Origin: Dactylonectria macrodidyma
Lineage: Eukaryota > Ascomycota > Sordariomycetes > Hypocreales > Nectriaceae
Assembly: GCA_020744425.1 (NCBI GenBank)
Contig: JAGMUV010000017.1
Location: forward strand, 806,001-870,000
Length of the DNA stretch: 64,000 nucleotides
Reading direction: 5' to 3'
A program made the translations under genes and the position numbers. The notes below the pieces were generated by a model. That model was not told the origin of the DNA and ran no database searches. It worked only from the letters and a program-made list of their open reading frames with translations. Of this stretch, positions 9,097 through 39,644 are shown in pieces. Position 1 is the first letter of the stretch; each line of letters starts with the position of its first letter.

Positions 9097-10353
9097 TCAA
9101 CTTGCTAATGTCAATCCCATGAGTTTTGCTAAAGCTTCCGCAATGTCCCTCGCAAATTCCTCATCGTTGATATCCCGCTCGTCTTCGATAATTTCGACGC
9201 CAGTACCTTCCAGCGTATTCCGTATTCCTTCAAACAGCTCTTTGTCGCTTGATGGATCAGCAAAAGGTCCATCTGGCGTCGAGATGGCGCTGACTCCGTT
9301 GGTCGGGATCCACACCTGGATCTTTGTTGGGTTCTTTGTCGCCTTTAGTTTGTTGCCTATGAACTCGCCAACGAGCTTGCCTTCGTCTGCCGAAGTTCTC
9401 ATCAAGGTAACCATAGGATTGTGTTCGAACAACTTCCTGTGCTGGTACTTTTCTGGTACCGTAGATCTGGGGCCAAAGTTGGACATGTCGGTCGCTCCAA
9501 GTGAGACAATGCACGGTATCTCGGCTCGAACAGCTGCCTCAAACCTGTCTGGCGCGCAAGGCATGATGCCCCCGGTGATCAGATCGCAAACCTCTGTTGT
9601 GGTTAAGTCCAAAACAGCATCCAGCCGACCCTCAGTGACAAGCCTTTCCATTGCTCGACCCCCGTGGCCTGTCGCGTGAAAGACATACGTCTCGATCGGG
9701 TACTTCGCCTCGAGATGTGCCCGTATTGCGGTTACTGCGGGTGTTGTGACGCCAAACATGGTGATGCCGACTCTTTTCTTGCCTCCAGCGATGGTTTGCT
9801 GCTCGTCTTTCTTTCGTTTTGCATATGACAACGCCATACTCGCGATAGCAGCCCCAGCATTGCTTAGAATATCTTTCAATAGCTGGTTCAAGCCTGCGAC
9901 GTCAACAACTGAGTACATCAGTGTTACATCTGATTCTCCCACGAGAAAGCTTGTATCTCCGCTCGCGACAGTCGACACGATCAACTTGGGAAATCCGATC
10001 GGCAGCGCGTCCTTGAACGCCGCTGCTGCAAGAGAAGAGCCGCAAGAACCACCAGCCGCCACGACGCCATCTATTGAGCCATGCGCAAAGAGGTTCTTGA
10101 TGAGTTTGGCTGCGCATTCACCCATGCAGCTGATGAACTCGCCTCGTGGTAGATGTGACACATCTGTGTTATTTCCGTATCGTTCCACTAGTTCAGACTG
10201 GCGAATGTGAATAGCGCTGTGCTCGGAGTCGTGTCGGCCGACATCTATCAAGAGGGCATTGATAGAATCTCCATGTTCTTGGATCCGGTCGCGAAGGAAG
10301 AGGAGCTCCTCCAGCTTTGTGTCGCAGGTACCAAGGATCGCAACGGTTGCCAT
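9097..10353 (-). CDS. UPF0261 / Tm-1-like ATP-binding domain protein
   Basis: A single uninterrupted exon of 418 residues. It begins with ATVAILGTCDTKLEELLFL and carries a glycine-rich AAGGSCGSSLAAAAF loop near residue 100, both typical of the UPF0261 family. The same fold forms the ATP-binding N-terminal half of tomato Tm-1. The biochemical role of free-standing microbial members is not settled. The start lies 307 bp from the divergent start of a TIM-barrel protein equivalent to the other half of Tm-1, which suggests co-regulation and a common function. Length is full for the family and no damage is seen. The 3' end converges with the SDR gene 296 bp away. Confidence 0.9.
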   Translation of the reverse strand: MATVAILGTCDTKLEELLFLRDRIQEHGDSINALLIDVGRHDSEHSAIHIRQSELVERYGNNTDVSHLPRGEFISCMGECAAKLIKNLFAHGSIDGVVAAGGSCGSSLAAAAFKDALPIGFPKLIVSTVASGDTSFLVGESDVTLMYSVVDVAGLNQLLKDILSNAGAAIASMALSYAKRKKDEQQTIAGGKKRVGITMFGVTTPAVTAIRAHLEAKYPIETYVFHATGHGGRAMERLVTEGRLDAVLDLTTTEVCDLITGGIMPCAPDRFEAAVRAEIPCIVSLGATDMSNFGPRSTVPEKYQHRKLFEHNPMVTLMRTSADEGKLVGEFIGNKLKATKNPTKIQVWIPTNGVSAISTPDGPFADPSSDKELFEGIRNTLEGTGVEIIEDERDINDEEFARDIAEALAKLMGLTLAS

Positions 10354-10660
10354 GTTTCTCGTTAACCTTCGATAGCAGAAGGTTTACACATGAAGAACGC
10401 GATCAAGTCAGACCCCGCACTGGACTTGTCGCGACAGAAGCATGCATACGAGACCCCTCAATCATACGTCACCTTGCAGCCGTGTTCGTGTCTCGGCATC
10501 GACGAGCCGGCTATGCAGCAATGCAAGTAATCAGAATGATGGCGTTGATTGGAGGTCCACCGAATGACTAATTATAATTGCCTCAACTTGGTGATTCACG
10601 AACTTCGGTATTTTCTCCACGTAAGCTCTTTCTTTTCACTGCTTGACACAACACCAGAAC
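10354..10660. promoter_or_regulatory. Shared divergent promoter of UPF0261 and TIM-barrel genes
   Basis: 307 bp separate the two divergent ATGs. No clear operator repeat was found. The arrangement means one control region can serve both genes. Confidence 0.6.
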
Positions 10661-16144: not shown

Positions 16145-18118
16145 ATGCATCTTAGCCTGTTTTCAGTGGCGTCGCTAGCTATGCTATGCGTAGCCATTGC
16201 CGCCCATGACCAGGCACAAGTGCCCCTCTCGGATCTCGCCCCCGAGCAAAAGACGACTCGGCCGAACATTGTCTTTGTCCTGACGGATGATCAGGACCTT
16301 CACATGGACTCATTGAGCTTCACGCCGTTGATCAAGAACCATCTGATTGACCAGGGAACCCTCTACAAGAAGCACTTTTGCACCACTGCTGTCTGCTGTC
16401 CCTCGCGCGCCAGCCTTTGGACGGGGAAATTGGCTCACAACACTAATGTGACCGATCTAAACCCCCCGTATGGTTCGTTGCTCCTAATGTCCCCAGTTTC
16501 TGAGAAGTGTCGCTGAATGAATTAGGTGGCTTCCCAATCTTTGTCAAAAATGGCCACAATGAAAACTACTTGCCGATTTGGCTGCAAGATGCCGGGTATA
16601 ATACCTTCTATGCTGGCAAGATGTTCAACGCCCACACCCTCTGGAACTACAACAAGCCGCACCTCAACGGCTGGAATGGATCTGTTGGTCTTCCACTTCG
16701 AAACTGTCAAAGAATGATATGCTAACCAGGCTAGGACTTTTTGCTGGATCCCAACACCTACGACTACTGGAACGCGACGTTCCAAAGGAACAAAGACAAG
16801 CCCGTCAACCACTTGGGAGAGTACTCGACCGACTTGGTAGCCAGCAAGGCCCTCGGATTTCTCGACGATGCGGTGGCTGCTGATGAGCCCTTCTTTCTCG
16901 CCATTGCTCCCATTGCCCCCCACAGCAATGTCAACAGTTCGATCTTGAATCCTGTCAAGGGACCCGAGGATGAGGTTCCTGTCTCAGACGACCTGTTTCG
17001 GGTCAACATCCCCAAGGCCGCCAAGAGACACGAGCACCTATTTAAGGGCGCTAAGGTGCCTCGAACAGAAAACTTTAATCCAGACAAGCCTTCTGGCGCG
17101 GATTGGATCCGACGTCAGCCCAAGCTCACGGATGAGATGGTCGAGTATAATGATCGTCATTACCGAGGACGTCTACAAGCACTGCAGGCGGTGGACGAGT
17201 TAGTTGACGACGTGGTCAAGAGACTTGAGCAACACGGAATTTTGGACAATACATACATTTTCTACACTACCGACAATGGATATCACATTAGCCAGCACCG
17301 CCTCCAAGCCGGCAAGGAATGCAGTTTCGAGGAGGACATTAACATTCCCCTCATCGTTCGGGGTCCTGGTATTCCCAAGGGCCAAGTTTACGAAGCCGTC
17401 ACAGCTCACATCGACCTTGTTCCAACAATCCTGTCTCTGGCTGGTGCACCTCTTCGGTCCGACTTTGACGGATCGCCAATCCCACTTTCCACCGCCGAAT
17501 TATCTGCAACCCCTAAGAACCGAGAGCACGCGAATGTTGAGTATTGGGGATGGGCTATTACCGAGAGCAAATGGGGCTTCAACGGGGGTGACGACAAGCG
17601 CGTCTTTAACAACACCTACAAGGCATTGCGAGTTGTCGGTGCTGATTATAACTTGTTTTACTCGGTTTGGTGCTCAAACGAACGTGAGCTTTACGAGATG
17701 AAAGTAAGTCCAACCACCTCATTACCAAGTTCCTCGAACGGTGCTGACGATTCCCAAGTCCGACCCCGGGCAACTCAGAAACCTGCTTCATGATGAGGAA
17801 GCGGAGATTGCTTCTCATACCACTATTCTTGGCTTCCCGTTGAGTAAAGTCATCCCAAGGCTAGATGCGCTTCTCTTTGTGCTCAAGTCTTGCAAGGGAA
17901 AGACATGCTCACAGCCCTGGTCGGCTCTCCACCCTCAAGGAAACGTCGTTACGTTGCATGAGGCACTATCACCTCGTTTTGACGAGTTCTACAATAATCA
18001 GGTCAAAATCGAGTACTCGAGGTGCGAACTGGGACACATAATCGATGCTGAAGGGCCTCAGTTTGAGACGGATGGTGAGGTGTACTGGCAAGGTTCAAAA
18101 TGGAGTGACTGGACTTAG
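16145..18118 (+). CDS. Secreted sulfatase (arylsulfatase / GlcNAc-6-sulfatase type)
   Basis: Four exons (16145-16472, 16526-16683, 16735-17703, 17759-18118) give 604 residues. Residues 1-20 form a signal peptide. PNIVFVLTDDQD (40-51) supplies the metal-binding Asp pair, and CCPSR at 84-88 is the sulfatase signature, with Cys84 the residue normally oxidised to formylglycine by C-x-P-S-R recognition. The segment FYTTDNGYHISQHRL holds the second metal site (Asp-Asn). The order and the CCPSRASLWTG form are closest to N-acetylglucosamine-6-sulfatase-like enzymes of fungi. It should hydrolyse sulfate esters outside the cell or in the secretory route, releasing sulfate. The gene lies between two membrane transport genes, divergent from a symporter and convergent with an UNC93-like protein. 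Confidence 0.93.
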
Positions 18119-22228: not shown

Positions 22229-23949
22229 CTACAGCTCTTTTGTCCTCTCCTCAGAAGCAGCAATCCACTGCTTCAACTTCGCCTCGGACCTTGCCTTCAG
22301 CCCAATCTTGAACGGCTTTGGATCAGTCGTCAACGACGTCGGATTCGCGCTGCACTCGATGGCGTCCATGTCCGGGCGGTCAGCTGCGTCTCGCGCAGGC
22401 AAGATCTCAAATGCAGTAATCAGTCGGATGTAAGCCGTATACAATTCGCGGTTGGCGAGATGCGAGCCGGCGCACATGCGCGATCCCGCGCCGTAGCCGT
22501 AGTGTGGCGTGCCGCCTTCCTTGTCGTCGAGGAAGCGCTCGGGGATGAACTCGTACGGCTGGTCGAAGCGTTTGCTGTCGTAGTCTGCCGCGTATGCGTT
22601 CTGCATGTCATCAGTCACGGTGCTGCATGTAAGATGGAGTAACAGTGAGAATCGGCCACGTACCATGAAAAAGGTTGTGCCTGCCGGGATGACAGATCCT
22701 TCGTAAGGAATGTCCTTGATGCTAGTGCGAGGAAGACAGATGGGGATGACGGTCCAATACCGAAGCGTCTCCTTGACCAAAGCTGTGATGTATGGCACCT
22801 TTTCTTCCAAAAGACCCCTCTCCCACGCCTCATCGCCGCCTGGGTACGCTTCTTCGATGGCCTTGAAGGCCTTGGCTTGCACAACTTGACCTTCGGGACT
22901 AGAGAGATACGCAAGGCCCATGACGAGGTTGACAGGAACGGTATCGAGACCAGCAGAGACCATGGTAAGGCAGATGGACTTGATCTCAGCTACGTTTCTC
23001 ATGTCAGTGTCGATCATGTTAGAGATACGTAGCGATAATCTCACCTTCGTTTAGCTTGGCTTCGGGATCCTTCAGAATATTCCCAGTAATGCAAGGCTTG
23101 TCAGTTCCCTCCTCGATTTGTTTCTTGAGGCCGTTCAACAGGTTCGTCAAGTAAGTATCTCGTCTAACCCTGAATTCTTGTGCCGAAGTGTTCTGCTTGC
23201 TCCAGATCCGCAGCAGCGGAACATAGTCCTGCCAGTTGTTGCTCGTAGACCGAAAGTTTGAGATTTCGCGCTCCACGTGCGTAATCTCCTGCAGCAGCTC
23301 GTCGTTGATGTTTCCACCAATGCGGCACCCGTAGTTGAGCGTTAGAGAGGTGTTGAGGGCGAACCGGGCAAAGTACGGCGACGGGTCAATGTCCACGGTG
23401 CCGCCACGGCAGTCGGTGAGCATTTCCTTGATGCTGGTCGTCGACTCTAAATCCAGGATGGGCATGTAGGACTGCACTGCTGGGCGGTTGAGGGCGGTGC
23501 CGGCGGCCTTGCGGCGGGCCTTGCAGGACGGGTCCCATGGCGAAGTGCCGATAGTGAAGCCTTGAGATGAAGATACGACGGAGTGAAAGGTGTGGAAAGT
23601 GGGACGAGAAATCAGCGCCGACTGGTGAGTGATCCAGAGGTGCTTCACGGAGTCGTACGAGTTGGCAAAGACGACACGCTTCAATGGTCAGCAGGCGGCT
23701 CTGCATTCATTCACTCAATCCATCACATACCCTATTTCCAAGACGCGTTTGGAAAACCGGGCCATATTTTTCTGCCCATTTCTTGGTTACTCGCGCATGG
23801 TCGGTGCCCAGCTGGATGAGGTTGCCAAAGATGGGAACGCCGGGAATCTCGGGAAGGCCCTTGATCTTAGGGGTGTCGGTCGAATTGAGGAACTTGATGA
23901 GCAAGTAAATGATGACGACGCTCGCGGCGTAGATGATTTGGTGAGACAT
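22229..23949 (-). CDS. Cytochrome P450, CYP504-like (phenylacetate / hydroxyphenylacetate hydroxylase)
   Basis: Four exons (23949-23731, 23678-23045, 22989-22664, 22600-22229) give 516 residues, the usual CYP504 length. An N-terminal membrane anchor (residues about 5-20) precedes the PEIPGVPIFGN proline hinge. AGLDT is the oxygen-activation helix, KETLR the ExxR motif, PERF the following motif, and YGAGSRMCAGSHLANRELY the heme loop with Cys436. The ending of the heme loop is characteristic of CYP504. Known fungal members hydroxylate phenylacetate at position 2 (phacA) or 3-hydroxyphenylacetate at position 6 (phacB), the latter producing homogentisate; I cannot tell which. It sits in the ER membrane and is divergent from homogentisate dioxygenase, which fits this pathway. 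Confidence 0.9.
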
Positions 23950-24419: not shown

Positions 24420-25831
24420 ATGCCTCCATCCGTGTTTCCGTTTGCTGAAAAATACCAATACCAAAATGGCTTTGGCTGCTACCACGAGTACGAACATACA
24501 TCTTGCATTGTCTAACACCAGCTCGATACTAATAAACTCACAGAACTGAGGCCATCCCGGGAGCCCTCCCCGTAGGCGCCAACTCTCCTCAGAAGCCCCC
24601 ATACGGCCTCTACGCAGAGAAGTTCTCAGGCACTGCTTTTACTGCCCCGAGACCGTCCAACCTGCAGTCTTGGCTATACCGCATCTTGCCTGCCGCAGCG
24701 CACCGCCCGTTTGATCTTGCTAAAACGCAGCAAGCGGGCCACACCCTCCGGGGCAGCGTCCCGGAATACACGCAGGTGCCGAACCAGCTGCGATGGGATC
24801 CGTTTGACGTTGATGAAGATGCCAATTTCGTTGCGGGGCTGCGGCTTGTTGCGGGCGCGGGCGATCCAGCTGTGAAGTCCGGTCTGGCAATCTATGTATA
24901 TGGCGCTGGGCGTAGTATGGATGCGCGCAGAGCGTTTTACTCGGCCGATGGAGACTTCCTCATCGTCGCGCAACTTGGAGTTTTAGACATCCGGACTGAA
25001 TTTGGCAATCTGCTCCTGCGGCCCGGCGAGATTGCCGTCATCCCGCGAGGCATCCGCTACAGAGTTGACTTACTGGGCGGCCCGAGCCGCGGTTACGTCC
25101 TAGAGCTCTTCGAGGGCCACTTCCAGCTCCCCGAGTTAGGTCCCATTGGATCCAACGGGCTTGCCAACGCGCGAGATTTCCAAGCACCAGCTGCCGCGTA
25201 CGAGGACGACGAGAGCGATTGGGTCATCACGGCCAAGTTTGGCAACAGACTCTTCGACGCGGCGCAAGACCACAGCCCGTTTGACGTGGTGGCCTGGCAC
25301 GGTAACTACTACCCGTATAAATACGACCTGGGCCGCTTCAACACCGTCGGTAGTATCAGCTACGACCACCCGGACCCGAGCATCTTCACGGTGCTCACGG
25401 CCCCAAGCCCAATCGCCGGAACTGCTATTGCCGACTTCGTCATCTTCCCGCCGCGCTGGCTCGTGGCTGAGAATACGTTCCGCCCACCGTGGTACCACCG
25501 CAACACCATGTCCGAGTTTATGGGCCTCATCTCCGGTGCCTACGATGCGAAAGCCGCGGGAAAGGGTGGATTCCAGCCTGGCGGCGCGTCGTTGCATAAC
25601 GTCATGGGTGCCCACGGGCCGGACTCGCAGACATTTGAGGCGGCGAGTAATGCTGCGTTGGCGCCGCAGAAGGTTGGCGGTGACAGCATGGCGTTTATGT
25701 TTGAGAGCTCTTTGATGTTGGGGGTTACAGAGTGGTCGTTGGAGAAGTGCCAGAAGGTGCAGGAGTTGTATAATGAGCACAGCTGGGGGAAGCTCAAGAG
25801 ACGGTTCTCGCCTCCCAAGTCGGGACAATAG
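24420..25831 (+). CDS. hmgA: Homogentisate 1,2-dioxygenase
   Basis: Two exons (24420-24487, 24544-25831) give 451 residues, the usual length. The enzyme opens the ring of homogentisate to maleylacetoacetate with O2 and Fe(II), in phenylalanine, tyrosine and phenylacetate breakdown. Family landmarks include [18 protein letters not shown] near the start, [20 protein letters not shown], the RSWLYR-like [16 protein letters not shown], and the iron region [16 protein letters not shown] followed by [11 protein letters not shown], with the conserved His and Glu ligands present. The first exon is short (22 codons plus two bases), as in other fungal copies. It lies divergent to the CYP504-like gene. 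No other pathway genes (fumarylacetoacetase, maleylacetoacetate isomerase) are within the window. Confidence 0.95.
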
Positions 25832-26110: not shown

Positions 26111-29100
26111 TCAGTCAACCATCGGCTCCTCATCACCTCCTCTCCGCCTCCGAGAACGATCCGGTGGAACTCCTCCAAACACCGGGTGAAAATATGGTAT
26201 CGGGATAAAAGCTGACTGTAACATTGGCATGGAAACCATCTTCTCATATCCGTGTCGTCCTTTTCTGCCTTGTCCTCCTACCCTTCCCCTGCGGTCTGTC
26301 GTGTCTGGTCCCTCGAAGTCGGCGCGCTTCTTTGGGGTGTATGAGCCGTCCCAGTATCGATATCTAGAATCGCCGGCTCTCTGATGCTTGGGTCGTTTGT
26401 CTGATGTCGAAGGTTGGGGTTTGGGGTTTCTGACGTCCTCTGATTCAGCATTGGGGTCCTTTGCTGGCGCTAGCAACTCTTTGCCAGGCGGATCAGAAGA
26501 CTCCTTGGGATGGCTTTCAATGAGCTCATTGTCGACTGTTTGTCGATTTTTGTGCAACCCTCCCTCGTTTTCGGAATCTAGAGGCCCCAGATCAGTTTCA
26601 AACGCGCCCTGTTCTCCGGCAGCTGTGTGATCAGCAGACTCAAAGTTGACCAAGGTTGGCGCCTCGTCGGTGTCGTCCTCCTTGTTGGTTTCATCAATAA
26701 CTTCCTGATCTTCGGCCATATATCCCGCAGACTTAGATTCTTCGACAACATCCTCCGTAGCCGTCACCCACGACTCAGTCCCTGAAGATCTATTCTCCGC
26801 TGAGACAGATTGCTCACTCGGAGTCCCGGAAGGAGTCATTTCCGCAGATGATGACTCCTGGTCGTCTACATCCGGCACTATAACGACAGCTCCAGGCTCA
26901 GGGCTCTTCTTTTGCTCCTGTTTTTTTGGCAGCTCGTTCTTTGGAGTAACAGTCTCTTTGTCAGACTCTGAATAGGACGAAAACGACCGAGACGTGTCGC
27001 TCGCATGACGCTGTGGCGGATAGTGCATAAACGCCGGAGGCGAGTTGAAGTGTGACCCGCCAAACATGACCGCCGTCGTCAACGCACCAATCGAGTCTAG
27101 GATCGGATCAAGAAGTTCCTCTCTGACTCTTCTGAGCTCTCTCCGCTTGACCTCGTCTCGTTCACAATATGCCAAGGAGGAGTACGTGCCCGAGCTGTCA
27201 ACGCTCGATTCGTATCGCCGCCGGTACGAGCGTTGCCTGCAGCGCGGAGTTTCGCTCTCCTCGTCCCTTTCAGCACCTTCGCCCTCCTCAGTCTCTGTTT
27301 CTGGCGGCTCAGGGCCTTCGGGCGGAGGCGACGTCGGGCCCCACGGAGGCGATCGTGACCAGCGTCGACCGCGGTCGTAGCGCGATGAGCTACGAGGAGG
27401 TGATGCGGGAGCAGGAGGTGGAGGTGGAGCGTATACTTCCTCTTCCTCTACGTCGACTTCGATGACGTGAAAGTCGTTTCTCAACCGCTCCGCCCCTTTG
27501 AGGGCTTGCTCAGACTTCTGCATCCGGTCTTCTGCCAGAGCTCTTAACCCGCTTACCTCTTCTTCTTTCGCACCTTGCTCTTCGTCGGTGGTCCTGATGG
27601 CTCTCGTGGCCGAGTCGACTTCGGCTTGTATCATCTCTTCAAAAAGTCTGCGCCTCTCCACTTCCTTGCGCGCCCAGTTCTCCGTCTTCTCGTTCCGCTG
27701 CCTCTGCTCCTCAGCCGCTTTTGCAAACAACTGTTCCATCTCTTCCCGCATCTTGGCTTCAAACTCCAACCGCCGTTCCGTCTCTTTCTTGGCCCACGTG
27801 TCTAACCTTTCACCTCTAGCCTCTTGAGCTAGGGCTGCCATACCTAAGGAGTTGTCGACTTCTCTTCGGATGGAATCGATAAGTTCCTTGTGTTTCTCCG
27901 CGTCGGCGGTTTCCCTGGCCGCTTTTTCTGCTTCGTAGCTGGGTGAGTATCCTCTTGGTTCCGCATACAGTGCCTCTCGTGCTGGCGGAGGTCGTGCCGG
28001 GTCTTCCAGGATCGGGGTTGGATGGAACATGTCTCTTTCGTGGACGTATGAATTCAGATCTGGCGGGCCAGGCGCCATGGGCGGCCTGTGAGCCCTGTTT
28101 CTTTCACGGTGGTATGCGTTGACATCTGGCGGCATCGACAATGGCTGCTGGTGAGGAATGCTTCCTCGAGGATGGTACGCGTTAAGATCTGGTGGCATCG
28201 ACATCGGCTGTTGGTGAGGCATACTTCTTTCGCGCGGGTATGCATTGAGATCCGGCGGACCAGGCATCGGCATCTGCTGCATGACGGCTCTTTCGCGAGC
28301 ATACGCGTTCAGGTCCGGCGGCCCTGGCTGGGGATACTCGAAGGGTGTAGCAGACGCCCCGGCATACGGCATGTTGAGGGTGGGAGCCTGTGGAGGACGC
28401 TGATTTGGCGCAGAATAGTACCCAGCCGCTGGGTGTGAAGGATACTGTTGATAGTCGAGATACGGGTCGACATGGTGATGCCTGTGCTCCCTGGCATGGT
28501 TTGGAACCCCAGGAGGCGGCACGACATACTGTACACCGCCATTGCCATGAGCGCGTCTTGGATGCGAGTCTCGGCGATAGAACTGCGGCCGGAAGTCGTC
28601 ATCCTCCTCGTCGAAGAAGTTAGACATGCGCGGGACCCGGCTCCGGCGCTTCTCCCGATCCCGATCCCGCTCCGTATCCCGGCGCATGTGGGCCGCACGC
28701 GGAGGTTCGGGCCGGCGCGACGGCCGGTATGTCGACGCTCTCCTACGGGTGTCTGCTTCGACTTCGCGATATTGCACGGGTTCTAGAGACGCTTCTCGTC
28801 GACGTCGCGGTGGTGGCGACGACGGCGACCCTCGTCTTGGGCTACGTCGGCATCGTCAGTAAGTCAACCAGTCTCATAAAGTTGCTGCCAAAACTTACGG
28901 CGCACGAATCTGAATGATATCAGACGACGCATCTGAATGATGGATCGCGTCGGAGAACTCGTCGTCGTCGATTCCATCGTAATCCTCATAATACGGCCTC
29001 GGGGCGCGTCCACGCTCTCTATTATCACGCTGATCCCGTTCCCGTTCTGGTCGTGCTCGCTCCCGTTCTATAATTCGCACAGGTTGGTGGTCGAAATTAC

Positions 29101-29715: not shown

Positions 29716-30351
29716 ATGTCCGGCGCTGAAGTCATCGGCCTCATCTCGGGTATCATCAGCCTCATCGATGCCGCCCTCAGCATCTACAACGCCGTCTCCG
29801 ACGCCTCCGGCCTGCCCTCGGACTTCCGCGACGTAGCATCACGCCTGCCGCTCATCAACCAGTCACTCTCAACGGCGCACCAAGCCCTGCAAGATGAGCC
29901 TGAGACGCCCGAAGCCCTTACGGCGCTGACATCGATGCTCAAAGCTTGCACCGCCAAGGCCGTCGCGCTGCAGGCCATCTTCCAAGCCGTCATCCCCGGC
30001 GAGGGCGCAAAACGACTTGAGCACTACTCGAAGGCCTTAAAGACGATTCCCAAAGCGGGAAAAGTAGAGAGCTTGATGGCCGGCATGCTCGCGGATTTAC
30101 AGGTCCTAGCCGTCCACCGCACCTTCAAGACCGTAACAAAGGCGCAGATTGAACAGCTTATGCGCGAGGCTTCTAAGGGCCACGAGAGCGAGGTTGCAAG
30201 GCAAGCTGCTCCGTCCATGAGGTTCGAGAACACTGGTTCTGGGTACCAGGTGGTCAAGAACGGAGATGGTAATCAGAACTTGAATTTTGGCTCCGGAGCG
30301 CAGTTCAACGGCGATGGGTTTTCAGGCACTTTCAACATTACGCAGAAATGA
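29716..30351 (+). CDS. SesA-like effector with C-terminal sigma-type amyloid motif (effector 1)
   Basis: A single exon of 211 residues. Residues 1-150 form an all-helical domain starting MSGAEVIGLISGIISLIDAA and containing LPSDFRDVASRLPLIN (33-48), matching the SesA N-terminal domain found alone or on fungal NLRs (PF17107). Residues 169-211 are Gly/Asn/Gln-rich: RFENTGSGYQVV, then NGDGNQNLNFGSGAQFNGD. The two GSG repeats with N-x-x-G-S-G and [A/Y]Q spacing are those of the sigma amyloid motif described in Nectria sesA and sesB. In such systems the NLR motif nucleates the effector motif, and the helical domain triggers a response, often cell death. Its stop lies only 38 bp from the stop of the convergent NLR. 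Function is by family analogy. Confidence 0.85.
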   Translation: MSGAEVIGLISGIISLIDAALSIYNAVSDASGLPSDFRDVASRLPLINQSLSTAHQALQDEPETPEALTALTSMLKACTAKAVALQAIFQAVIPGEGAKRLEHYSKALKTIPKAGKVESLMAGMLADLQVLAVHRTFKTVTKAQIEQLMREASKGHESEVARQAAPSMRFENTGSGYQVVKNGDGNQNLNFGSGAQFNGDGFSGTFNITQK

Positions 30352-30389
30352 GACATGATGTATCTATAATTATGATATATATCCATTTG

Positions 30390-33300
30390 TTACCCTGCCA
30401 ACTCCAAACTGCTCAACCATAATTCCTCGTTCCATCCAGATGTACCCACACTTTGAAGCAATCCCCGAATAATTCCATGATGTCCCGCAAACTCCACCGC
30501 CGTCCAACCATTCTTGGCCCTTGGAGTGATATCAGCTCCCGCCTTCAAGAACACAGTGACGAGTTTCTCCTTTCCCATCTGAACCGCATGTATCAACGGC
30601 GTTCTATCGTCTCCATCTCGGACGTCAACGTTGGCTCCGCCTTCGACTAGGATAGTCAAAAGCTCCTCGTTGTCGAACCACACGGCGCGGTGAAGAGCCG
30701 CAAATCCGTTCTTGTCCTTGATGTCTGGATCTGACGATCCCTTCAATAGGATCCGTACGCCTTCCGTAAACTTTTGATCTATGGCCTGGTGCAGCGCCGT
30801 CATGCCGTCCTGGTACTTGACATCGCCAGACGCGCCGTTCTCCAGGAGGACCTGCATCATGTCCTTGTCCTTGGCCTGCATCGCAATAGCAAGCGGTGTT
30901 AAGCCCACTTGATCTTCGACGTTGGCCTCGGCTCCTCTAGACGCGAGTAGCCCGACTACTTCCTTATGCTTCTGCCTCACCGCACGATGTAGAGCCGTGT
31001 CGCCAATCTTGTCCTTGGCGCTCGTGCTTGTCTTCCGGTCTAAGAAGAACCTGACAATCTCCAGGTGTCCAAGCCACGAGGCCAAATGCAGAGCCGCCAT
31101 TCCTGCTTCGTTTGCGTCGTCTGCCTTGGCGCCGTTCTCGCACAGCAGCCAAACGACAGAAAGATCATTTTTCTGCACGGCCAGGTCGAGGCAGTTGAGT
31201 CCTTTCTCATCCCTGATTGTGACAGTGGCTTTTTTCATGATCAACAGCCATATTAGGGAATTGCGCGCTGCTTTGACTGCGTGATGAAGCGCCGTCCAGC
31301 CGCGCTTATCTTGAGCGTCTAGGTGTGCCCCATACTGGAGTAACGTCCAGACGACTGAGTCTTCGTTGGTCTTTATAGCCTCGATGAGCACGGTCGAGCC
31401 GTCCTTGAATGCTTCGTTGGCATCTGCTCCATGGTGAAGGAGCAACTGGACAATCGAGAGATGTTTATATATGACTGCCCACCGCAGCGGCGAGTATCCA
31501 TCCTGGTTGTCTCGCAAATCGACTTTTACTCCCATCTTCAGCAGACGACGGACCATCTTGATGTCTCCATCTTGGACCACCTTTCTCAGCGGCGTCCATC
31601 CGTCGGCGTTGGAGGGCTTATTGAGGTCAACACCCTTCTTTAGGAGAATCTCGATGACATCGCGGTGGCCCTCGTCCATGGCCGTTCGTAGCATGGACCA
31701 GCCCTGATGCTCCGCGTCGACGTCGACTAAGTTCTCGGCTAACAGTTTCGCAATGGATGACGGCCCGTAACGCATCGTCCATGTTAACGGGGTGTATCCT
31801 CTCCCACCTGGAATATCGACTCGTGCTCCAGCTTCAACCAGCTTTTGCACCACCTGTGCACAATCTTCCTTGGGAGACCACATGAGCGCTAGATGCAGCG
31901 GCGTATTGCCATTCCGATCTTGAGCGTTTGTATCCGCAGACCTTTGCGTTAGCAATTCTACTAGGTCGCTTCGCCCAATCTTTGCTGCCCAGTGCAGAGC
32001 AGTTCGGTTGTCTGAACACGCGGCATCGACCTTTACGCCCTGCTCAATCAACTTCTCGGCCCATTCGGCGCGCTTGAAGTAGATGGCGGCATGCAACCCA
32101 GTCATGCTATGTAGAGCCAGGCTGTCTTTCCCGGCTATCAGCTGAAAGGACGCCTGCACTTTCTCCTTGTCGTGGAGAAACTGCATGGCCAAGTCCTCGG
32201 CCTCGTCGTCGACATGCTTTTCGCCCATGGAGTAGTGGCTCAACCAGTGCATGGATGCGTAATCAAGTAGTGGGCGCTCGGTATCGTCATCCGAGTCCTT
32301 GGAAAGCAGATACTTGAGACACATCTTGGCCAAGTCCATGTCCGAGCTCGTTGGCACGATGCCATGGCTCCAGAGATAGTTTAGGACAGACTCATGCACA
32401 AGACTGAGCACCTTCGTCTTCGGGTCCATAGTGACCAGCCCGGCACACGCGGATATCAACTTTGCCTCTGCCGGTAGATAGTCTTTGTTGAGAGTCGTCC
32501 CGCTGCGACGGATGGCGAAGCTATGGCAAATTTGAGCTGCATTTACCGGGCCGACGGAATTGACGACCCAGGTGAGGACATGCTGGGCTAAACCGGGCTC
32601 ATGTTTCTTTCGTGCCAAGTCGCTGCTCAACTGTATCTTCTCAATCGATTTCTCAAAGGCGCTGTCGACAGTTTGTGGGAGCGTTTTCAGCGCAGGCTTA
32701 ATATCGCCGAGAGTCTCCCGCTCGCTGAGATAGTCCATGTGCAGTTTCGTCAACAGGAAGCTTAGAGAAGTTTTTAGCAATCTTCATCCTAATAGTCAAT
32801 ACAAGGAAAATACCAACATTCCTGTCGTGGCGTCGGCTACATCCTGAACGACCTTGTCTTGGAATTTCGGATCTGGTTCCTGGGCAATCTTCCGCTGGAG
32901 ATCTTTATCATCCCGAATCCGACTTTTGACGTACTTCTCAACGTCGTCGCGGCTTGGTTTGAGCTCGAACATCTGTTCTTCCTGGAGACACCAGCTATCC
33001 AAGTGGCCACTCCTCGAAGTAACCAGCACTTTAACATTTTCCGGCATGTTTCTAAGCGCATCCTGAATCTTGTCGTGCGTGTTTTCTTTTGGCGTGTTTA
33101 AGCAGTTATCCAAGGCGTCGACTACCAAGTAGACTCTCTCAAACGTGGCGAGTTCAGCTGTGAATAGGTTGACGTAGTCCTCTGAAGTGGGGGAGATCAT
33201 GCGAGTGCGCCAGCGATTATACTTGGCCTGCAGCTCTTCCACGATGGAGTCGGAGCTTTGGCATTGCAAAAGCTGTATCAGCAAGTTCATCACAATATTT

Positions 33301-34096
33301 GCAAAGGTGGGTCGCTGGTCCTGTCTGGTTTCGCTCGGTTGATCCTGTCCATCTTGGAAATAGACGTAGATGCAGGCGGTGTTTTCTATCTCCTCGGTGA
33401 CTTTCTCAATCGAGTCAATTATCAGGGATCTAGCACACGATTGAATTAGTTACGTCGCCCAATTGAACGAAAAGGCATATCTTAGTCGCTCATGTACTCA
33501 CGAAAGCATTGTTTTGCCAGACCCGACTAGGCAAGTGCTACAGTTAGCAAAAGACGGAACGGAACAGATCCGAGGACATGCGTACGAATTCCATGTATCC
33601 AAAAGAACCGCGACGGATTTGAGCCATTTATCCAAGCTTGAAAGCCCTCATTATCCATAGCCCACGTGCCAGTCCCTGGAACCATTTGGTCAAGGAGCGT
33701 CTGGTGGTGGGCCCGAAAGTCAAGTTGTGAATGAAGTTTGAGCCATTCGATTATCACGACGCCTTTAAAAGGTATTAGAGCGCGTTACACTCGAGATCTC
33801 ATTGACGGGAGACATACGAGTTGGGAGATCAAAACCATCGTCCCCTTGATGAATCAGTTCAGCCAAGTGCGACTTGGACGATAGTGTGACTAGCTCATAC
33901 TATTAGCAATCGCTCTAAATCAACAATTTCTATGCTGTTTCTCCTTACTGTTAAAGACCTTTTGAGACCTTATCAAATTCTGTGTGCTATTATCGCCTTT
34001 CAATACGCCCTGGTCTCCTAGCCCGCTGTGAATGGGCAAGGTTCCGCTGCCTTTGTTTTCGGCCGCAATGCGCCGAAACGGCTCTGGCGATGCCAT
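30390..34096 (-). CDS. NACHT-ankyrin NLR with N-terminal amyloid-like motif
   Basis: Six exons (34096-33949, 33889-33818, 33762-33586, 33526-33502, 33429-32818, 32760-30390) give 1134 residues. Residues 14-30 carry an N-x-GSG-xxx-IH-x-G-x-G-D-Q motif in a Gly/Ser/Gln-rich N-terminus, in place of the usual effector domain. A linker with the common pre-NACHT elements (TGTWAMDNEGFQAWI, FFWIHG) precedes the NACHT P-loop GILGSGKT (Lys137), encoded by a 25-nt micro-exon. Walker B is YLVVDALDNC, then VLVTSRSG and a winged-helix region ending in a GIFLLTKLHMDYL block. About 17 ankyrin repeats fill the C-terminal half. Fungal NLRs of this type sense non-self and activate effectors by oligomerisation. 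An in-frame ATG at 34123 would add nine residues. No break is seen. Confidence 0.88.
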
Positions 34097-34621
34097 GGCG
34101 AGGTAATCGACAACAGATACCAAATCGCGGCTATCGCCTCAGTCGTTCCTCGCCTTAGATACCAGAGCAAATTTTACGGAAGAACAATGACGGATGCCTG
34201 AGACAAATAGCGCAGCGCCGCATTTGGGAGGCTCTTGATGTGGCTGGGGTTGAAATGTAAGAACTGGCGGCTAGGTTGAATAAGCTAGCGACAACTGGAG
34301 GCTATGATTCGTGACGTCCTCACACATGATCCAGCTAGCTTATGCACATTGGGCATCCATTATGCACTTTGCGAGGCTTCCTCAGTCTCAGGGCCAGGGT
34401 GTGTTGGGGGTGTGGAAAGACATGGGTTGGCTCAAGAAGCGGGTCGACCCAGCGCATTTCCCCTCATTTCTTAGGGGCTTAAGAGCCTAGGACGTCGTGG
34501 GCAACCTGTAAGGATCACAAATACTTATCATATCCCAGAGTTGCTCAATTAACAAACATTTTCACCAACTATTCTCAAACCCGATACCTAATCCTATTCC
34601 ACGCCCTTTCAAACGCTCAAA
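34097..34621. promoter_or_regulatory. Divergent promoter between NLR and effector 2
   Basis: 525 bp between the divergent ATGs, so a common control region for a receptor and its likely effector. No repeat or known operator was recognised. A short frame continuing the NLR N-terminus to 34123 overlaps its edge. Confidence 0.5.
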
Positions 34622-35278
34622 ATGGTCAGCCCAGCAGCAAAGAAAGTCATCAAGGCAATCGAGAAATTTCTCGGCCCAATCGACAGGGCGATTCGGGACC
34701 AAGATGATGTTGCCGAGGGTATCAAACTACCTGAAGCATTCCCAGCCGTAGCCGCATACTTGCCCCTCGTCAACAAAATCTTCTCGTCCATCACCTCGCA
34801 CTTACAGGCAAAGAGTGCGAGCGAAGAAACCGAAGATGACAAAGAGCGCTATTCTGAGATCAAAGACGCCGTTGAAGAGCTCTCGCCGCTGGCAGCACGC
34901 CTTGAGGACCTTTTCGACACAACCACTTCCGAAGAGCCAACTCCCTGGCTGGAACGCTACAAGACGGCTGTGGATGATGGCGACAGGCTAGAAACCGTCA
35001 TGCGGAATTTGCTCAGTGGTATTCGCGAGTTTGCGAAGGCGCCTCTTGTCAGTGACGACGAAGTCAACGAGCTGCAAGAGGCGATCAAGGCAGTCAAGGC
35101 TCTGCCAGCTTCTCTGGCTGACGACAAGGGAGGGAGTCATAGCTTCGTCAACAGCGGCAGTGGCATCATGGGAATCCATTTAGGCAAGGGAGAACAAAAT
35201 TGGAACACATCGACTGGTTTTCAAGTCACAGGGAAAGGCTCTCATGTGAATTATAACAATGGGGTCCCTCCAGCCTGA
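34622..35278 (+). CDS. SesA-like effector with variant amyloid motif (effector 2)
   Basis: A single exon of 218 residues. Residues 1-160 are helical and acidic; LPEAFPAVAAYLPLVNKIFS (36-55) follows the same LPxxFxxVAxxLPLxN pattern as effector 1, so both belong to the SesA-like group. The end is Gly/Asn-rich: from Phe175, FVNSGSG, then IMGIHLGKGEQNW. The pattern N-x-GSG-xxx-IH-x-G-x-G-(D/E)-Q is shared with residues 14-29 of the divergent NLR. This makes it the likely cognate effector: the NLR motif would template its C-terminus, and the helical domain would act. No membrane helix is evident. Role by analogy with sesA/sesB and HET-S type systems. Confidence 0.8.
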   Translation: MVSPAAKKVIKAIEKFLGPIDRAIRDQDDVAEGIKLPEAFPAVAAYLPLVNKIFSSITSHLQAKSASEETEDDKERYSEIKDAVEELSPLAARLEDLFDTTTSEEPTPWLERYKTAVDDGDRLETVMRNLLSGIREFAKAPLVSDDEVNELQEAIKAVKALPASLADDKGGSHSFVNSGSGIMGIHLGKGEQNWNTSTGFQVTGKGSHVNYNNGVPPA

Positions 35279-36140: not shown

Positions 36141-38198
36141 TTATGTTCCCTCCGGTGACGTAATATCTAAATAATGCTTTAAAATAGATGCACTCCATGA
36201 GCAATCCATGCCAGCTCTGGCTAGGTTCAAGTCCTCTGTCTCCTCACTGGACGATATTGATATGGTAGCTGCAGGAATAGCCTGATCTGTGGAGGGATCT
36301 GGAACTAGCAAAGTCTCACCATGTTCACCTGTGACCCCCATTAATGATTCTTCATTTCCCAAGGATGCTTGGGGCGTACTTTGCATTCTTTCTTTCGCGA
36401 CCTGCGCTTGAGTGTAGAGGTAATCGATTCGGCTCCAACGGCGATCTTGAACAACATCCGGGTCCATTTTGCAGTCATTGTAGGTTTTCTCAATGAGTTG
36501 CCATACCATGGCTCTAGCCACATCCCAAGTCATGGAAAGACAAGTCTCTAGCAGGCAATAGGCCAAAGAATTCCATTCGACGCACTGTCCAAGGAGCCAA
36601 AGCCATTGAGGGTTTCCATTACCAAATTGTCGCAGACTGTGGGACTGCCGTAAGATATCGCGACACATATTCCCATAATGAGGCCTCCGTGCAATCCCCT
36701 TGGTTGCGTCTGCGAGAGGGCTGCATTTAGTCGCTCTTAGCTTGAGAAAGGTCAAGCGAGTCAGGACCAGTGTAACAAAATCTAGTGGAATGCACACATC
36801 GCAGTGTGTGACATATTCCTTCTCCATGTTGTTCTGAACAAGTTCAATCATTTCCAGAGCCTCTGTCCTCGTCAGCGACGGCTTTTGTGTATTCGCAGTA
36901 CACAAGATGCGCCGGGCCAATTCGCCAGTGTGAAGGTGTATCAAGGTGAACAGCATTTCTGTTTTCCCCTGCTGACTTTCTGGCAATTTCACCATACTCG
37001 GATTCAGGTTTATGTCGTTGACGTTGAGCGGTTTTTCGACATCTGGGATTGGGTCAAAGATGATCGGCTCTACGCCATGGTCCATCGCAATATGGGCATC
37101 CAGAACGAAGATCTGCCACCAGAGGCGTCGTCTAAATTCAAGGTCAAATGGAGAGAGAGCATGTGCATTCTTTTCATTGTCAAGACCAATTATCATGGCA
37201 TTCCCGACAGCTATCCCAATCAGCGGGCAGACGTTAGCTCCTTGCGGATCGTGTCTGGCAAATGCCTAAGGTGAAACTTTTAGTTAGTGTCTTGCTTCAC
37301 ATCGCTACAGTTAGAAAGGAACTGGACTCACCATATACAGTACGAAAGCTTGTAGTACTGTGATATCGCGTGACCTAAGAAAATTGGCGCGACAGAGTGA
37401 CTGCTCTACTCCTGAGCGATATCTAGGAGAATTTATTAGTACCATGGCCATTCTATGGATAGAAGAACAAGAGAACCATGCCTTTTTAACAAATGTACCT
37501 TATCCTCATGAAAATTAGTTCTACATGTCTCTATAGGCATCGCCGTAATAGTGGCATAGTATATTGCGAAGAGCAAACATTCTGTGGGTGTATCAATATC
37601 CGATGGGCATCGTACGAAGTCCATGATCCGCCTTTGAACGGTGGGAATATGGAAAAGTTTCAGCACTGGATCCACCACGTCCAGATAATTCTGCCATAAG
37701 AAGGTAACTTCTGCTGACGAGGGGTGTAGGTCTACCAATGAGGCCGAAAACTTGATGTCGAATGGGAAAGTAGAGGGGGTTAACAGGGGATGTGGCGGAA
37801 GATGGTTTGAACGCGAAGGTTGCAGGACATATTGCACTGGCTGCTATCTAAGTCAGGTTTTTATTTTACGGAAGATCAGCGCGATTCGCACTCACCTTGA
37901 CAGGACCAGATCCATGTGCCTGAGATTGCCCTGAAGAAGACAAGCGCACAAGCTGTCCCACTGATGCAGGGCCTCTATCCAAGTCATTCAAAGGCTCCAC
38001 AGTATCCTCAACATGCACATTTGCGGTAGAATGGGTAGTGCTAGAGTGAGACTGAGGGATCTTGATGACGTCCAACGTCGGGTACTGACACCGGTGACGT
38101 ATCTTTACGCAATAGCCACACGGAAAAGAACGGTCACATTTGATCTTGCGCCGACGGCATTCGAGGCAGGACCTGCCTGGAGCGGCACGGCGAGGCAT
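36141..38198 (-). CDS. Zn2Cys6 transcription factor
   Basis: Four exons (38198-37896, 37843-37482, 37422-37332, 37265-36141) give 626 residues. MPRRAAPGRS is followed by a zinc cluster of the form Cx2Cx6Cx5Cx2Cx6C (CLEC, KIKCD, PCGYC) within residues 11-40, then a Ser/His-rich linker. The Fungal_trans region runs from TFLWQNYLDVVDPVLKLFHI through LEFRRRLWWQIFVLDAHIA and VEPIIFDPIPD. Such proteins bind CGG-containing DNA in the nucleus. The second intron has a GC donor (AAG|GCATGG) with a TACTAAT branch point; only this junction rebuilds LLKRYRSGVEQSL. A start at 38345 is possible but gives an unlikely leader. It is divergent from the NmrA-like gene across a CGGAG-rich promoter. Confidence 0.9.
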
Positions 38199-38623
38199 GG
38201 ACAATCGGTCAACACAGTGAAGATGATTAGAAATGATTGATGTGCTGAGCAAGACTCGAGTATGGATGAAGGAGAGACGGAGAGAGGAGAGAGTGAGAGA
38301 GTAAGTACGGAGCGGGACAAGGACGGAGCGGAGCGGAGCATCCACTTCATTGATTGGTCAGAGCGGAGGAGCGGAGGGAATTTTCCCATTTGATGGCTTC
38401 CGATTGGCTATAGCGGAGGTATCGCTCAGCACCGCCTTTTGTCATCCACTTATTGAGTCGTCGGGCTTCAGCTCGAAAGGGAGACAGGACACGCCGTGGA
38501 TATCAGCGTGTGAAAAGTAGAAAAGACGTGCCATCCTCTGCGTGTATCCAAGTACAATTTGTTTCCCTTACAACTGTAAATCAACGCATCCTTATACTAC
38601 CTCGTCTTACTCATCAACTCAAT
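38199..38623. promoter_or_regulatory. Divergent promoter with clustered CGGAG repeats
   Basis: 425 bp between the Zn2Cys6 gene and the NmrA-like gene. From about 38270 to 38420 there are many GCGGAG/ACGGAG units, including a run of three near 38325-38337 and further copies at 38364, 38371 and 38412. CGG triplets in direct repeat are the classic targets of Zn2Cys6 proteins, so autoregulation is plausible. Confidence 0.6.
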
Positions 38624-39644
38624 ATGTCCACATTCAACACTGTTGCAATCGTTGGTGTAAGTGGTTGACTAATGTGTTTCATTCCAGGAACACCCTTACT
38701 AACAACCCCTTCAAGGCCAGTGGCACTGTCGGTAGAATCATCCTTGACGGCCTTATTGCCTCTTCCATATTCAAGATTACCGCTATTTCCCGACAACACA
38801 GCAAAGCCACATTTCCCACTGGGGTCACGGTGCGCAAGACAGACTTCACGGACGCAGATCTTCAAGCCTCGTTCAAGGGTCAAGATGTTGTCATTTCGGT
38901 CCTCGGTGGTGGAGCATTTGGCGAGCAGAAAAAGCTTGTTGACGCCGCTGTGTCCGCTGGCGTGAAACATTTTCTCCCCTCGGAATTCTCGGTTAGCGTT
39001 GAGGATGAAGCTGCCATACAGCTGCTCCCACTTTTTGGCCAGAAGAAAGAGCTCATTGACTACTTGCGATCAAAAGAATCCACCGGATTGTCATGGACAG
39101 GAATTGCTACTAGTGGGTTGTTTGACTGGGTAAATATTTGCCAAAGCATCACCAATCTTCGCAAGTACAAATTAATCATGTCTCTGAACAGGGTCTTGAG
39201 ACTGGTTTCTTCGAATTCGATATTGCAAAGCACACTGCTACCATTTGGGATGATGGCAATAAAGTCTTCACATTGACCAACAAACAGCAGCTGGTCGATG
39301 CAGTCATATCTGTGCTCGAGCATCATCAGGAGACTCGCAACCGCTACATTTATGTATACTCGGTTGAAACCTCGCAGAATGAGGTTCTAGCATCTCTTGA
39401 GAAGGCAACTGGAGTCAAGTGGGATGTCACCACCACTATTACAGATGAGCAGATTGCGGAGGCCGGGAAGAAGCTGAGTGGTGGGGACTTTACAGGTGCA
39501 TATATTCTAGTCCGTGCCACCGTCTTTGGCAACACTGCGGGGTTGCGTTCCAATTATGCTAAGGAGGAAAATCTTGCTAATGGCATACTGGGACTTGAGA
39601 CTGAAAAAGTCCAAAAGACGGTGGATCGAGTCCTTAAGATCTAG
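38624..39644 (+). CDS. NmrA-like / isoflavone-reductase-like oxidoreductase
   Basis: Three exons (38624-38656, 38716-39129, 39192-39644) give 299 residues. The first exon codes only MSTFNTVAIVG; splicing completes the dinucleotide loop VAIVGASGTVG. QDVVISVLGGGAFGEQKKL and AGVKHFLPSEF follow, with the K-HFLPSEFS pattern typical of isoflavone reductase and NmrA-like proteins of fungi. These bind NAD(P)H and either reduce aromatic compounds or act as redox sensors; the substrate is not evident. The start has an AATATGTCC context after a T-rich leader. It shares a promoter with the Zn2Cys6 regulator, its likely controller. Confidence 0.9.

What the first reader, a model, noticed from the sequence alone, without database searches (positions are those of the whole stretch)
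29716..35278. NLR with an N-terminal amyloid-like motif flanked by two SesA-like effector genes
The 1134-residue NACHT-ankyrin protein has no effector domain at its N-terminus, only a short Gly/Ser/Asn/Gln motif (residues 14-30). On each side sits a small gene with a SesA-like helical domain and a C-terminal GSG-repeat motif. This is the gene arrangement of fungal amyloid signalling (NLR templates the effector by motif matching), known from sesA/sesB and HET-S/NWD2. A receptor bracketed by two candidate effectors, convergent on one side and divergent on the other, is unusual and may let one sensor drive two outputs.
Basis: partly seen in the sequence, partly recalled or inferred. Interest (0 to 1): 0.9.

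Follow-up and report, generated by a model that had tools for sequence, protein, structure and literature searches.

The report
Fungal immune receptor with two effectors
A fungal immune-receptor gene sits between two genes for helical cell-death-type proteins that appear to be switched on through related amyloid tags, a known kind of system, but one of the two partners consistently lacks the membrane-seeking helix of the other and may relay or damp the death signal rather than carry it out.

Summary
A NACHT-ankyrin receptor (1134 aa, 6 exons, minus strand) lies between two SesA-domain genes: A, convergent, 38 bp between stops, and B, divergent, 525 bp between starts. All three carry sigma-type Gly/Asn/Gln repeats. 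The full trio recurs in Cylindrodendrum hubeiense, and two of the three in six further records. Against simple motif matching, the three motifs resemble each other far less (means 0.22-0.30) than those of classical sigma clusters in the same genome (0.56). New here: B belongs to a separate SesA group (support 100/100). In 8 of 8 members the first helix is polar (6-10 charges), against 2-4 in 32 of 32 A-type relatives, and it is less conserved than B's core in 4 of 5 comparisons, while core and tail are kept. I read A as the membrane executor and B as a non-executing amyloid partner (relay or damper); this step is inferred. Verdict: new variant of a known kind.

The parts
29716..30351 (+). Effector A: SesA-domain protein, 211 aa, single exon
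   Evidence: ORF; PF17107 121 bits; 31 homologs besides itself
29722..29787 (+). Helix 1 of A (residues 3-24), hydrophobic, 2 charged residues, KD 1.64
   Evidence: M1 S2 G3 E5 G8 invariant in 32 sequences; helix 3-28 in the model
29743..30108 (+). SesA domain of A (residues 10-131)
   Evidence: PF17107 full length 1-122
30220..30339 (+). Sigma-type tail of A (residues 169-208)
   Evidence: PF17106 22.3 bits, E 1.5e-4, under cut-off; 25.4 bits in the genome scan; 13 of 32 A-type proteins match at E 0.1
30352..30389 (.). 38-bp gap between the stops of A and the NLR (convergent)
30390..34096 (-). NACHT-ankyrin NLR, 6 exons, 1134 aa; introns 33948-33890, 33817-33763, 33585-33527, 33501-33430, 32817-32761 (predicted from splice signals and frame)
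   Evidence: N-terminal 460 residues 68% identical to Cylindrodendrum G7Z17_g118
33971..34060 (-). N-terminal sigma-like motif of the NLR (residues 13-42), three imperfect repeats, encoded in exon 1
   Evidence: 17.5 bits, E 4.7e-4 with a profile built from effector tails only; no Pfam match
32913..33676 (-). NPHP3_N / NACHT region (residues 103-313), interrupted by introns
   Evidence: coordinates mapped by me
30465..32051 (-). Ankyrin-repeat region (about residues 582-1110)
   Evidence: PF12796, PF00023, PF13857 and others; limits approximate
34097..34621 (.). 525-bp divergent intergenic region between the starts of the NLR and B (candidate shared promoter, untested)
34622..35278 (+). Effector B: divergent SesA-domain protein, 218 aa, single exon
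   Evidence: ORF; PF17107 61.4 bits from profile position 8; 8 relatives plus itself
34631..34705 (+). Helix 1 of B (residues 4-28 in the model), polar and amphipathic, 9 charged residues in the aligned segment
34679..35026 (+). SesA domain match of B (residues 20-135)
35138..35224 (+). Sigma-type tail of B (residues 173-201 by Pfam; repeats run on to about 210 by eye)
   Evidence: PF17106 14.5 bits, E 0.04, under cut-off; 7 of 9 members match at E 1, best 6.2e-5

Best explanation
This is a sigma-type amyloid-signalling immune module. The NLR senses an unknown ligand through its ankyrin repeats and oligomerises by its NACHT domain (inferred from the NLR class). Its clustered N-terminal sigma-like motifs then nucleate a beta fold that is copied onto the sigma tails of SesA-domain partners. 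A, with a conserved hydrophobic first helix in a helical bundle, is the likely membrane-disrupting executor. B keeps bundle and tail but has a polar, less conserved first helix. It most likely joins the assembly without inserting into membranes, as a relay/amplifier or a damper on A. Shown: gene anatomy, domains, motif relatedness, co-inheritance, the B group and its helix-1 difference. Inferred: amyloid formation, templating, cell death and the role of B. The confidence below is for the module; given the module I put about 0.45 on a non-executing B, 0.35 on B as a second executor and 0.2 on other roles.
For: Domains and layout. NLR N-terminus hit by an effector-only tail profile at E 4.7e-4, 17.5 bits against 7.5 for the best of 2000 shuffles; 12 of 82 NLR homologs also hit at E below 0.05. 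The NLR motif scores highest with B (48; 1 of 500 shuffles as high) and third with A (41; 1 of 500) among 15 effector tails. Trio in Cylindrodendrum hubeiense G7Z17_g117 / g118 / g119 on one contig. A+B together in Dactylonectria estremocensis, Ilyonectria robusta and Phialemonium thermophilum. B+NLR in Plectosphaerella plurivora and a metagenome contig; A+NLR in Hypoxylon cercidicola (same contig inferred from equal contig length). B-type proteins are one side of a branch with 100/100 support, 8 rows of 32, in 100% of 200 bootstrap trees. Helix 1: 32 of 32 A-type KD 1.06 to 1.83 with 2-4 charges, 8 of 8 B-type KD -0.77 to 0.20 with 6-10 charges. Helix-1 identity against core identity: B 25/59, 36/60, 29/42, 25/36 and 86/85 per cent; A 68/78, 79/73, 64/47, 75/49, 57/52. 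HET-S exposes an N-terminal membrane segment whose presence goes with toxicity (PMC3531502, passages).
Against: Mean within-cluster motif similarity is 0.30 (A-B), 0.22 (A-NLR) and 0.23 (B-NLR), about the same as for unlike roles in different species (0.27, 0.24, 0.20), against 0.556 in classical sigma clusters of the same genome. A and B motifs of one cluster do not match each other better than random pairings (10 of 24 permutations as good). An unlinked tail (L021, C1) fits the NLR motif better than A does (44, 0 of 500 shuffles as high). No window copy reaches Pfam's sigma cut-off and NLR exon 1 has no Pfam match. In I. robusta and P. thermophilum A and B bear consecutive locus tags, so no NLR is annotated between them, and no NLR of D. 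estremocensis was among the 82 hits. On hydropathy alone B (up to 0.20) touches the classical SesA proteins (L016 0.16, L010 0.35, L012 0.65); a broken SesA copy at L021 has 5 charges in the segment by the cruder anchor. No expression, fibril or toxicity data.
Confidence: 0.7

Rival explanations
1. Two-output module: A and B are both executors that act on different membranes or by different chemistry, B through an amphipathic helix 1, so that one receptor drives two kinds of damage. (This concerns the role of B inside the module; it overlaps with the third rival, so the odds do not add to one.)
For: B helix 1 is strongly amphipathic (muH 0.42-0.65 in 8 of 8) and modelled as a full helix. CgPNT1 regulates two unlike effectors (PMC7885112, passages).
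Against: Net charge of the segment is not conserved: +3, +3, -1, +2, -1, -2, +2, -1 over 8 B-type proteins (segment set there by a simple anchor). Helix 1 is less conserved than the core of B in 4 of 5 comparisons.
Confidence: 0.3
2. Uncoupled relic: the genes once formed a sigma module, but the motifs have drifted so far that the NLR no longer templates A or B; the linkage is inherited baggage.
For: Low within-cluster motif similarity. An unlinked tail fits the NLR motif as well. The Dactylonectria estremocensis A tail lacks about 18 residues of the repeats. A decayed B-type fragment lies beside a broken NLR at L022.
Against: Motifs are conserved between orthologs (means 0.44-0.49) and the effector-only profile still finds the NLR motif. 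The three window genes are open. The trio is kept in Cylindrodendrum.
Confidence: 0.15
3. Ordinary sesA-type locus without anything special about B: the polar helix 1 is neutral variation in a loosely constrained domain and A and B do the same job.
For: Other SesA proteins of the genome have a less hydrophobic helix 1 than A (0.16-1.29 in 7 checked).
Against: B-type is a well-supported group with a consistent difference in 8 of 8; the 7 own-genome SesA proteins checked have at most 4 charges there.
Confidence: 0.3

Closest known systems
sigma (s) locus of Nectria haematococca: het-eN (NACHT-ankyrin STAND) with sesA and sesB (PMC3321046, passages read)
   Same: NACHT-ankyrin receptor with an N-terminal sigma motif next to a 5' intron, adjacent effectors with C-terminal sigma tails, one of them SesA
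   Different: Second effector there is the sesB hydrolase; here it is a second, divergent SesA. Motifs there are reported as more alike within a cluster than between orthologs; here the reverse
sigma loci with two adjacent sesA copies (one sentence in PMC3321046)
   Same: Two SesA genes at one NLR locus
   Different: Whether those copies include a B-type is not stated in the passages read; here the two are old paralogs (24% identical) on opposite sides of the NLR
CgPNT1 / CgHELLP / CgSBP PP-motif cluster of Chaetomium globosum (passages of PMC7885112)
   Same: One NLR with an amyloid motif regulates two effectors encoded beside it
   Different: PP motif, a HeLo-like effector plus a putative lipase; the P. 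anserina PNT1 is NB-ARC-TPR
HET-S/HET-s and NWD2 of Podospora anserina (passages of PMC3531502; PMC3321046)
   Same: Logic of NLR motif to effector tail; a non-toxic variant with an intact prion tail triggers the toxic one
   Different: HeLo domain, HET-s motif, WD-repeat receptor; HET-s and HET-S are alleles, A and B are linked paralogs

Membership tests
sigma-motif NLR/effector locus | NLR whose N-terminus carries a motif in place of an effector domain | tested here: met
   No Pfam match before residue 103; effector-tail profile hit 17.5 bits, E 4.7e-4
sigma-motif NLR/effector locus | Sigma motif by the curated Pfam profile PF17106 | tested here: inconclusive
   A 22.3 and B 14.5 bits against a 27.6 cut-off, NLR exon 1 none; 13 of 32 A-type at E 0.1 and 7 of 9 B-type at E 1 match; P0003, P0004, P0008, P0011 and P0016 carry precomputed PF17106
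sigma-motif NLR/effector locus | Adjacent gene with effector domain plus C-terminal homologous motif | tested here: met
   A and B, PF17107 over cut-off; tails match the relatives' tail profile at 72.7 and 75.3 bits
sigma-motif NLR/effector locus | Motifs more similar within a cluster than between orthologs (reported feature, PMC3321046) | tested here: not met
   Within cluster means 0.22-0.30 (11 pairs), same role in different species 0.44-0.49 (51 pairs). In my own-genome control the two are nearly equal, 0.556 over 13 and 0.573 over 22 pairs
sigma-motif NLR/effector locus | Amyloid formation and templating | not testable with these tools
   needs peptides and cells
SesA domain family (PF17107) | Profile match over the curated cut-off | tested here: met
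   A 121, B 61.4 bits, cut-off 26.3
sesA/sesB triad | sesB hydrolase with sigma tail at the locus | tested here: inconclusive
   The only PF17106 matches in the window are A and B at E 1 and PF17046 has none on C9; the whole window was not scanned for a hydrolase
HET-S/HeLo effector (PF14479) | HeLo domain over cut-off | tested here: not met
   A 12.9 bits against 23.2; B no match at E 1
MLKL-type four-helix bundle | Fold match that stands above unrelated bundles | tested here: inconclusive

The most novel reading that the evidence does not exclude
B founds a class of non-executing SesA companions: a linked paralog that kept the bundle and the amyloid tail but gave up the membrane helix, and sits between receptor and executor as a relay that sets the threshold of, or quenches, amyloid-triggered death. 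It would be a genetically fixed counterpart of the HET-s/HET-S allele pair inside one immune module. In both genomes in which I saw all three genes the raw motif scores rank A-B (70, 72) above NLR-B (48, 55) above NLR-A (41, 52), as a relay NLR to B to A would predict, though the last two differ little.
Probability: 0.3. Interest if true: 0.72.

Novelty: new variant of a known kind. Interest (0 to 1): 0.47.

Why it matters
Amyloid-signalling NLR loci in fungi are known, but how a self-propagating, all-or-none death signal is tuned is, to my knowledge, open. A conserved second effector that keeps the tail but lacks the membrane helix would be a built-in modulator and gives that question a simple gene-removal test. 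The stable difference between the three motifs also offers a natural case for asking how much sequence mismatch amyloid templating tolerates.

Tried and rejected
Simple motif-matching by co-evolution: rejected as a strong claim. Within-cluster similarity was about background, and an A-B pairing permutation over 4 clusters was null (10 of 24; D. estremocensis dropped because its A tail is truncated). The own-genome control rests on 14 motifs that I sorted into five clusters by position; one NLR of them lies about 8 kb from its effectors.

Curated sigma and Ses_B Pfam models: no match on the NLR exon. Sequence search of solved structures with the joint A/B profile gave mostly designed repeat proteins and viral spike chains, read as low-complexity chance matches. 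Foldseek with the A model: no match at E 0.001, the best at 0.031 being a designed protein. VIA matches stay under the stated noise level for helical bundles. The A model is of middling confidence (pLDDT 66.3, the other four models 48.8-53.9), B better (79.8). HET-S itself did not show among the 50 entries listed; that is no evidence against the fold.

Helix-1 values: the first attempt set the segment by a crude anchor that failed for several distant A-type rows; it was redone from an alignment, and those values are used, apart from the B net charges under the two-output rival and the 5 charges of the broken L021 copy, which come. One search took 7 own-genome SesA proteins, nine.

Bacterial-type promoter scan of the NLR-B intergenic region: 1 site against 0.7 expected, meaningless for a fungus. 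Synteny in relatives could not be read at DNA level, as the genome search says that this genome has no relatives there; it rests on locus tags and equal contig lengths.

One search compared 15 effector tails: A, B and 13 that I picked from the 28 sigma places. NLR-side and truncated places were left out. Of the 31 places, two are A and B and one (C1 at 2.589 Mb) was never fetched.
Full report
WHAT IS THERE. The window is part of a 77.3-Mb genome in 77 contigs. Its nearest named protein relatives are Dactylonectria, Ilyonectria and Cylindrodendrum, so I take it as a nectriaceous fungus (inference; Cylindrodendrum is placed in Nectriaceae). Effector A is 29716-30351 +, the NLR 34096-30390 -, effector B 34622-35278 +. 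A and the NLR end tail to tail with 38 bp between the stops; the NLR and B start head to head with 525 bp between the starts. I saw no close second copy in the genome: the large NLR C-terminal exon finds one other place at E 1e-60, 37% identical. B's best match besides itself is A at 27%, and A's is 36%.

IS IT MORE THAN CHANCE. Both small proteins pass the SesA cut-off (121 and 61.4 against 26.3 bits). The genome has 22 SesA matches, 20 over the cut-off. Two within 5 kb would be expected about 0.03 times if they were scattered at random (my arithmetic), but SesA genes do gather at NLR loci and C1 at 2.924-2.926 Mb has another close set. The sigma signature is weaker: A 22.3, B 14.5 bits against 27.6, NLR exon 1 nothing. 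I therefore built a profile from the tails of 38 relatives of A and B, leaving out both window proteins, one fragment and every NLR. It hits the window NLR N-terminus with 17.5 bits (E 4.7e-4 for 2085 targets), A with 72.7 and B with 75.3 bits. It also hits 12 of 82 NLR homologs at E below 0.05; the best of 2000 shuffled sequences reached 7.5 bits. All three proteins thus share a motif of the sigma kind, three imperfect Gly-x-Gly-x-Gln repeats in about 27-30 residues.

CO-INHERITANCE. Cylindrodendrum hubeiense has A, NLR and B as consecutive genes G7Z17_g117, g118 and g119. Six further records hold two of the three on one contig. These are A+B in Dactylonectria estremocensis, Ilyonectria robusta (AUP68_09995 and _09994) and Phialemonium thermophilum (VTK73DRAFT_8659 and _8660); B+NLR in Plectosphaerella plurivora and a 6-kb metagenome contig; and A+NLR in Hypoxylon cercidicola. 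Contig identity is inferred from equal contig length. The four species I looked up fall in Hypocreales, Cephalothecales, Glomerellales and Xylariales. Against a tight trio: the consecutive tags in I. robusta and P. thermophilum leave no annotated NLR between A and B. No D. estremocensis NLR was among the 82 hits. No B was found in Neonectria or Hypoxylon, nor an A in Plectosphaerella, in single searches of limited sensitivity.

MOTIF MATCHING. Of 15 effector tails of this genome that I compared, the NLR motif scores best with B (48) and third with A (41); an unlinked tail from locus L021 is second (44, 0 of 500 shuffles as high). On 19 motifs from ten sources, motifs of the same role in different species are alike (means 0.44 for A, 0.48 for B, 0.49 for NLR). 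Those of one cluster are not (A-B 0.30, A-NLR 0.22, B-NLR 0.23), about the same as unlike roles in different species (0.27, 0.24, 0.20). In the classical sigma clusters of the same genome, unlike members of one cluster reach 0.556 over 13 pairs, like members of different clusters 0.573 over 22 and unlike members of different clusters 0.495 over 55. So the control shows closer motifs throughout, not a clear cluster effect. Pairing A with B tails at random is as good in 10 of 24 permutations. Daskalov et al. 2012 report extensions more similar within a cluster than between orthologs for their loci (PMC3321046, passages read). Here the motifs have kept separate identities. This weakens plain homotypic templating, or implies an assembly of distinct motifs.

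THE TWO EFFECTORS DIFFER. A-type relatives begin with a hydrophobic helix: KD 1.06 to 1.83 with 2-4 charged residues in 32 of 32, and M1, S2, G3, E5 and G8 invariant in 32. In B-type proteins the same segment has KD -0.77 to 0.20 with 6-10 charges in 8 of 8 (the ninth, P0039, is an N-terminally truncated fragment and was left out). Seven other SesA proteins that I picked from this genome lie at 0.16 to 1.29 with 0-4 charges. B therefore touches the least hydrophobic of them in hydropathy and differs from them in charge. B-type proteins form one group with 100/100 support in an unrooted tree of 32 SesA sequences. Helix-1 identity to the window copy is below core identity in 4 of 5 B comparisons (25/59, 36/60, 29/42, 25/36, and 86/85 for the closest). 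In A it is above core identity in 4 of 5 (68/78, 79/73, 64/47, 75/49, 57/52). The AlphaFold models still show a full first helix in B (residues 4-28) and A (3-28), so B seems to have kept the bundle and lost the greasy face.

HOW IT PROBABLY WORKS. [quoted passage not shown] SesA is described as remotely homologous to HeLo (PMC4518210, passage read). By analogy A is the executor. B, with tail and bundle but no membrane helix, would be recruited without killing, either spreading the fold to A or diluting it. This step is inferred. The chief alternative is that B is a second executor that works through an amphipathic surface helix; the unstable net charge and low conservation of that helix speak against it without excluding it.

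WHAT IS KNOWN ALREADY. The receptor type, the effector domain, the motif class, adjacency, triads and even two sesA copies at one locus are in PMC3321046 (passages read). One receptor regulating two effectors is reported for CgPNT1 (PMC7885112, passages read). Sigma motifs are one of the established fungal classes, with 71 NLR-side instances listed in PMC9815663 (three sections read). I found no description of a SesA companion without the hydrophobic helix in searches; this covers only open-licence PubMed Central papers, seen as listings, passages or single sections. I therefore rate the locus a new variant of a known kind.

Noticed in passing
L014:3092-6484 - (G000 C24:541500-548500): One open frame of 1131 aa reads NB-ARC, TPR repeats, then a SesA domain (930-1050) and a strong sigma motif (1088-1128) at its C-terminus: an NLR fused to a sigma-tailed effector in the unusual order. 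Start not determined; a gene fusion or a mis-assembly is possible.
   Followed up: partly
L010, L011, L012, L013 (C1 at 2.09-2.10 Mb and 4.48 Mb; C24 at 0.167 Mb): Classical sigma clusters with a SesA protein and a sigma-tailed serine-esterase-like protein (sesB type) whose tails are nearly identical between clusters, with sigma-motif NLR pieces; 21 sigma matches over the Pfam cut-off in the genome.
   Followed up: partly
L016:2735-4699: A PF17100 (NACHT_N) protein and a SesA protein share almost the same sigma tail (normalised score 0.80), with a sigma-motif NLR about 8 kb away: another two-effector sigma locus, with strongly matched tails.
   Followed up: partly
L021 (C1:2921000-2930000): A SesA protein with a sigma tail that fits the window NLR motif second best of 15, a broken SesA copy and two more sigma pieces within 3 kb.
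   Followed up: partly
L022:3706-5490: Remnant of a second B-type effector (109-aa open frame lacking the N-terminal half) beside an NLR with an internal stop and a sigma-like N-terminal piece.
   Followed up: partly
P0002, Dactylonectria estremocensis A: The annotated A ortholog lacks about 18 residues of the sigma repeats; deletion or gene-model error not resolved.
   Followed up: no
window 24536-25831 +, 38521-39276 +, 36141-37265 -, 9097-10383 -, 16735-17793 +, 22229-23050 -: Ordinary neighbours: homogentisate 1,2-dioxygenase, an NmrA-like protein, a fungal transcription factor, a UPF0261 protein, a sulfatase and a P450.
   Followed up: no
window 26111-28855 -: Long low-complexity Pro/Arg/Glu-rich open frame (914 aa) with repeated PPDLNAY-like units and no Pfam match at 1e-5.
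   Followed up: no
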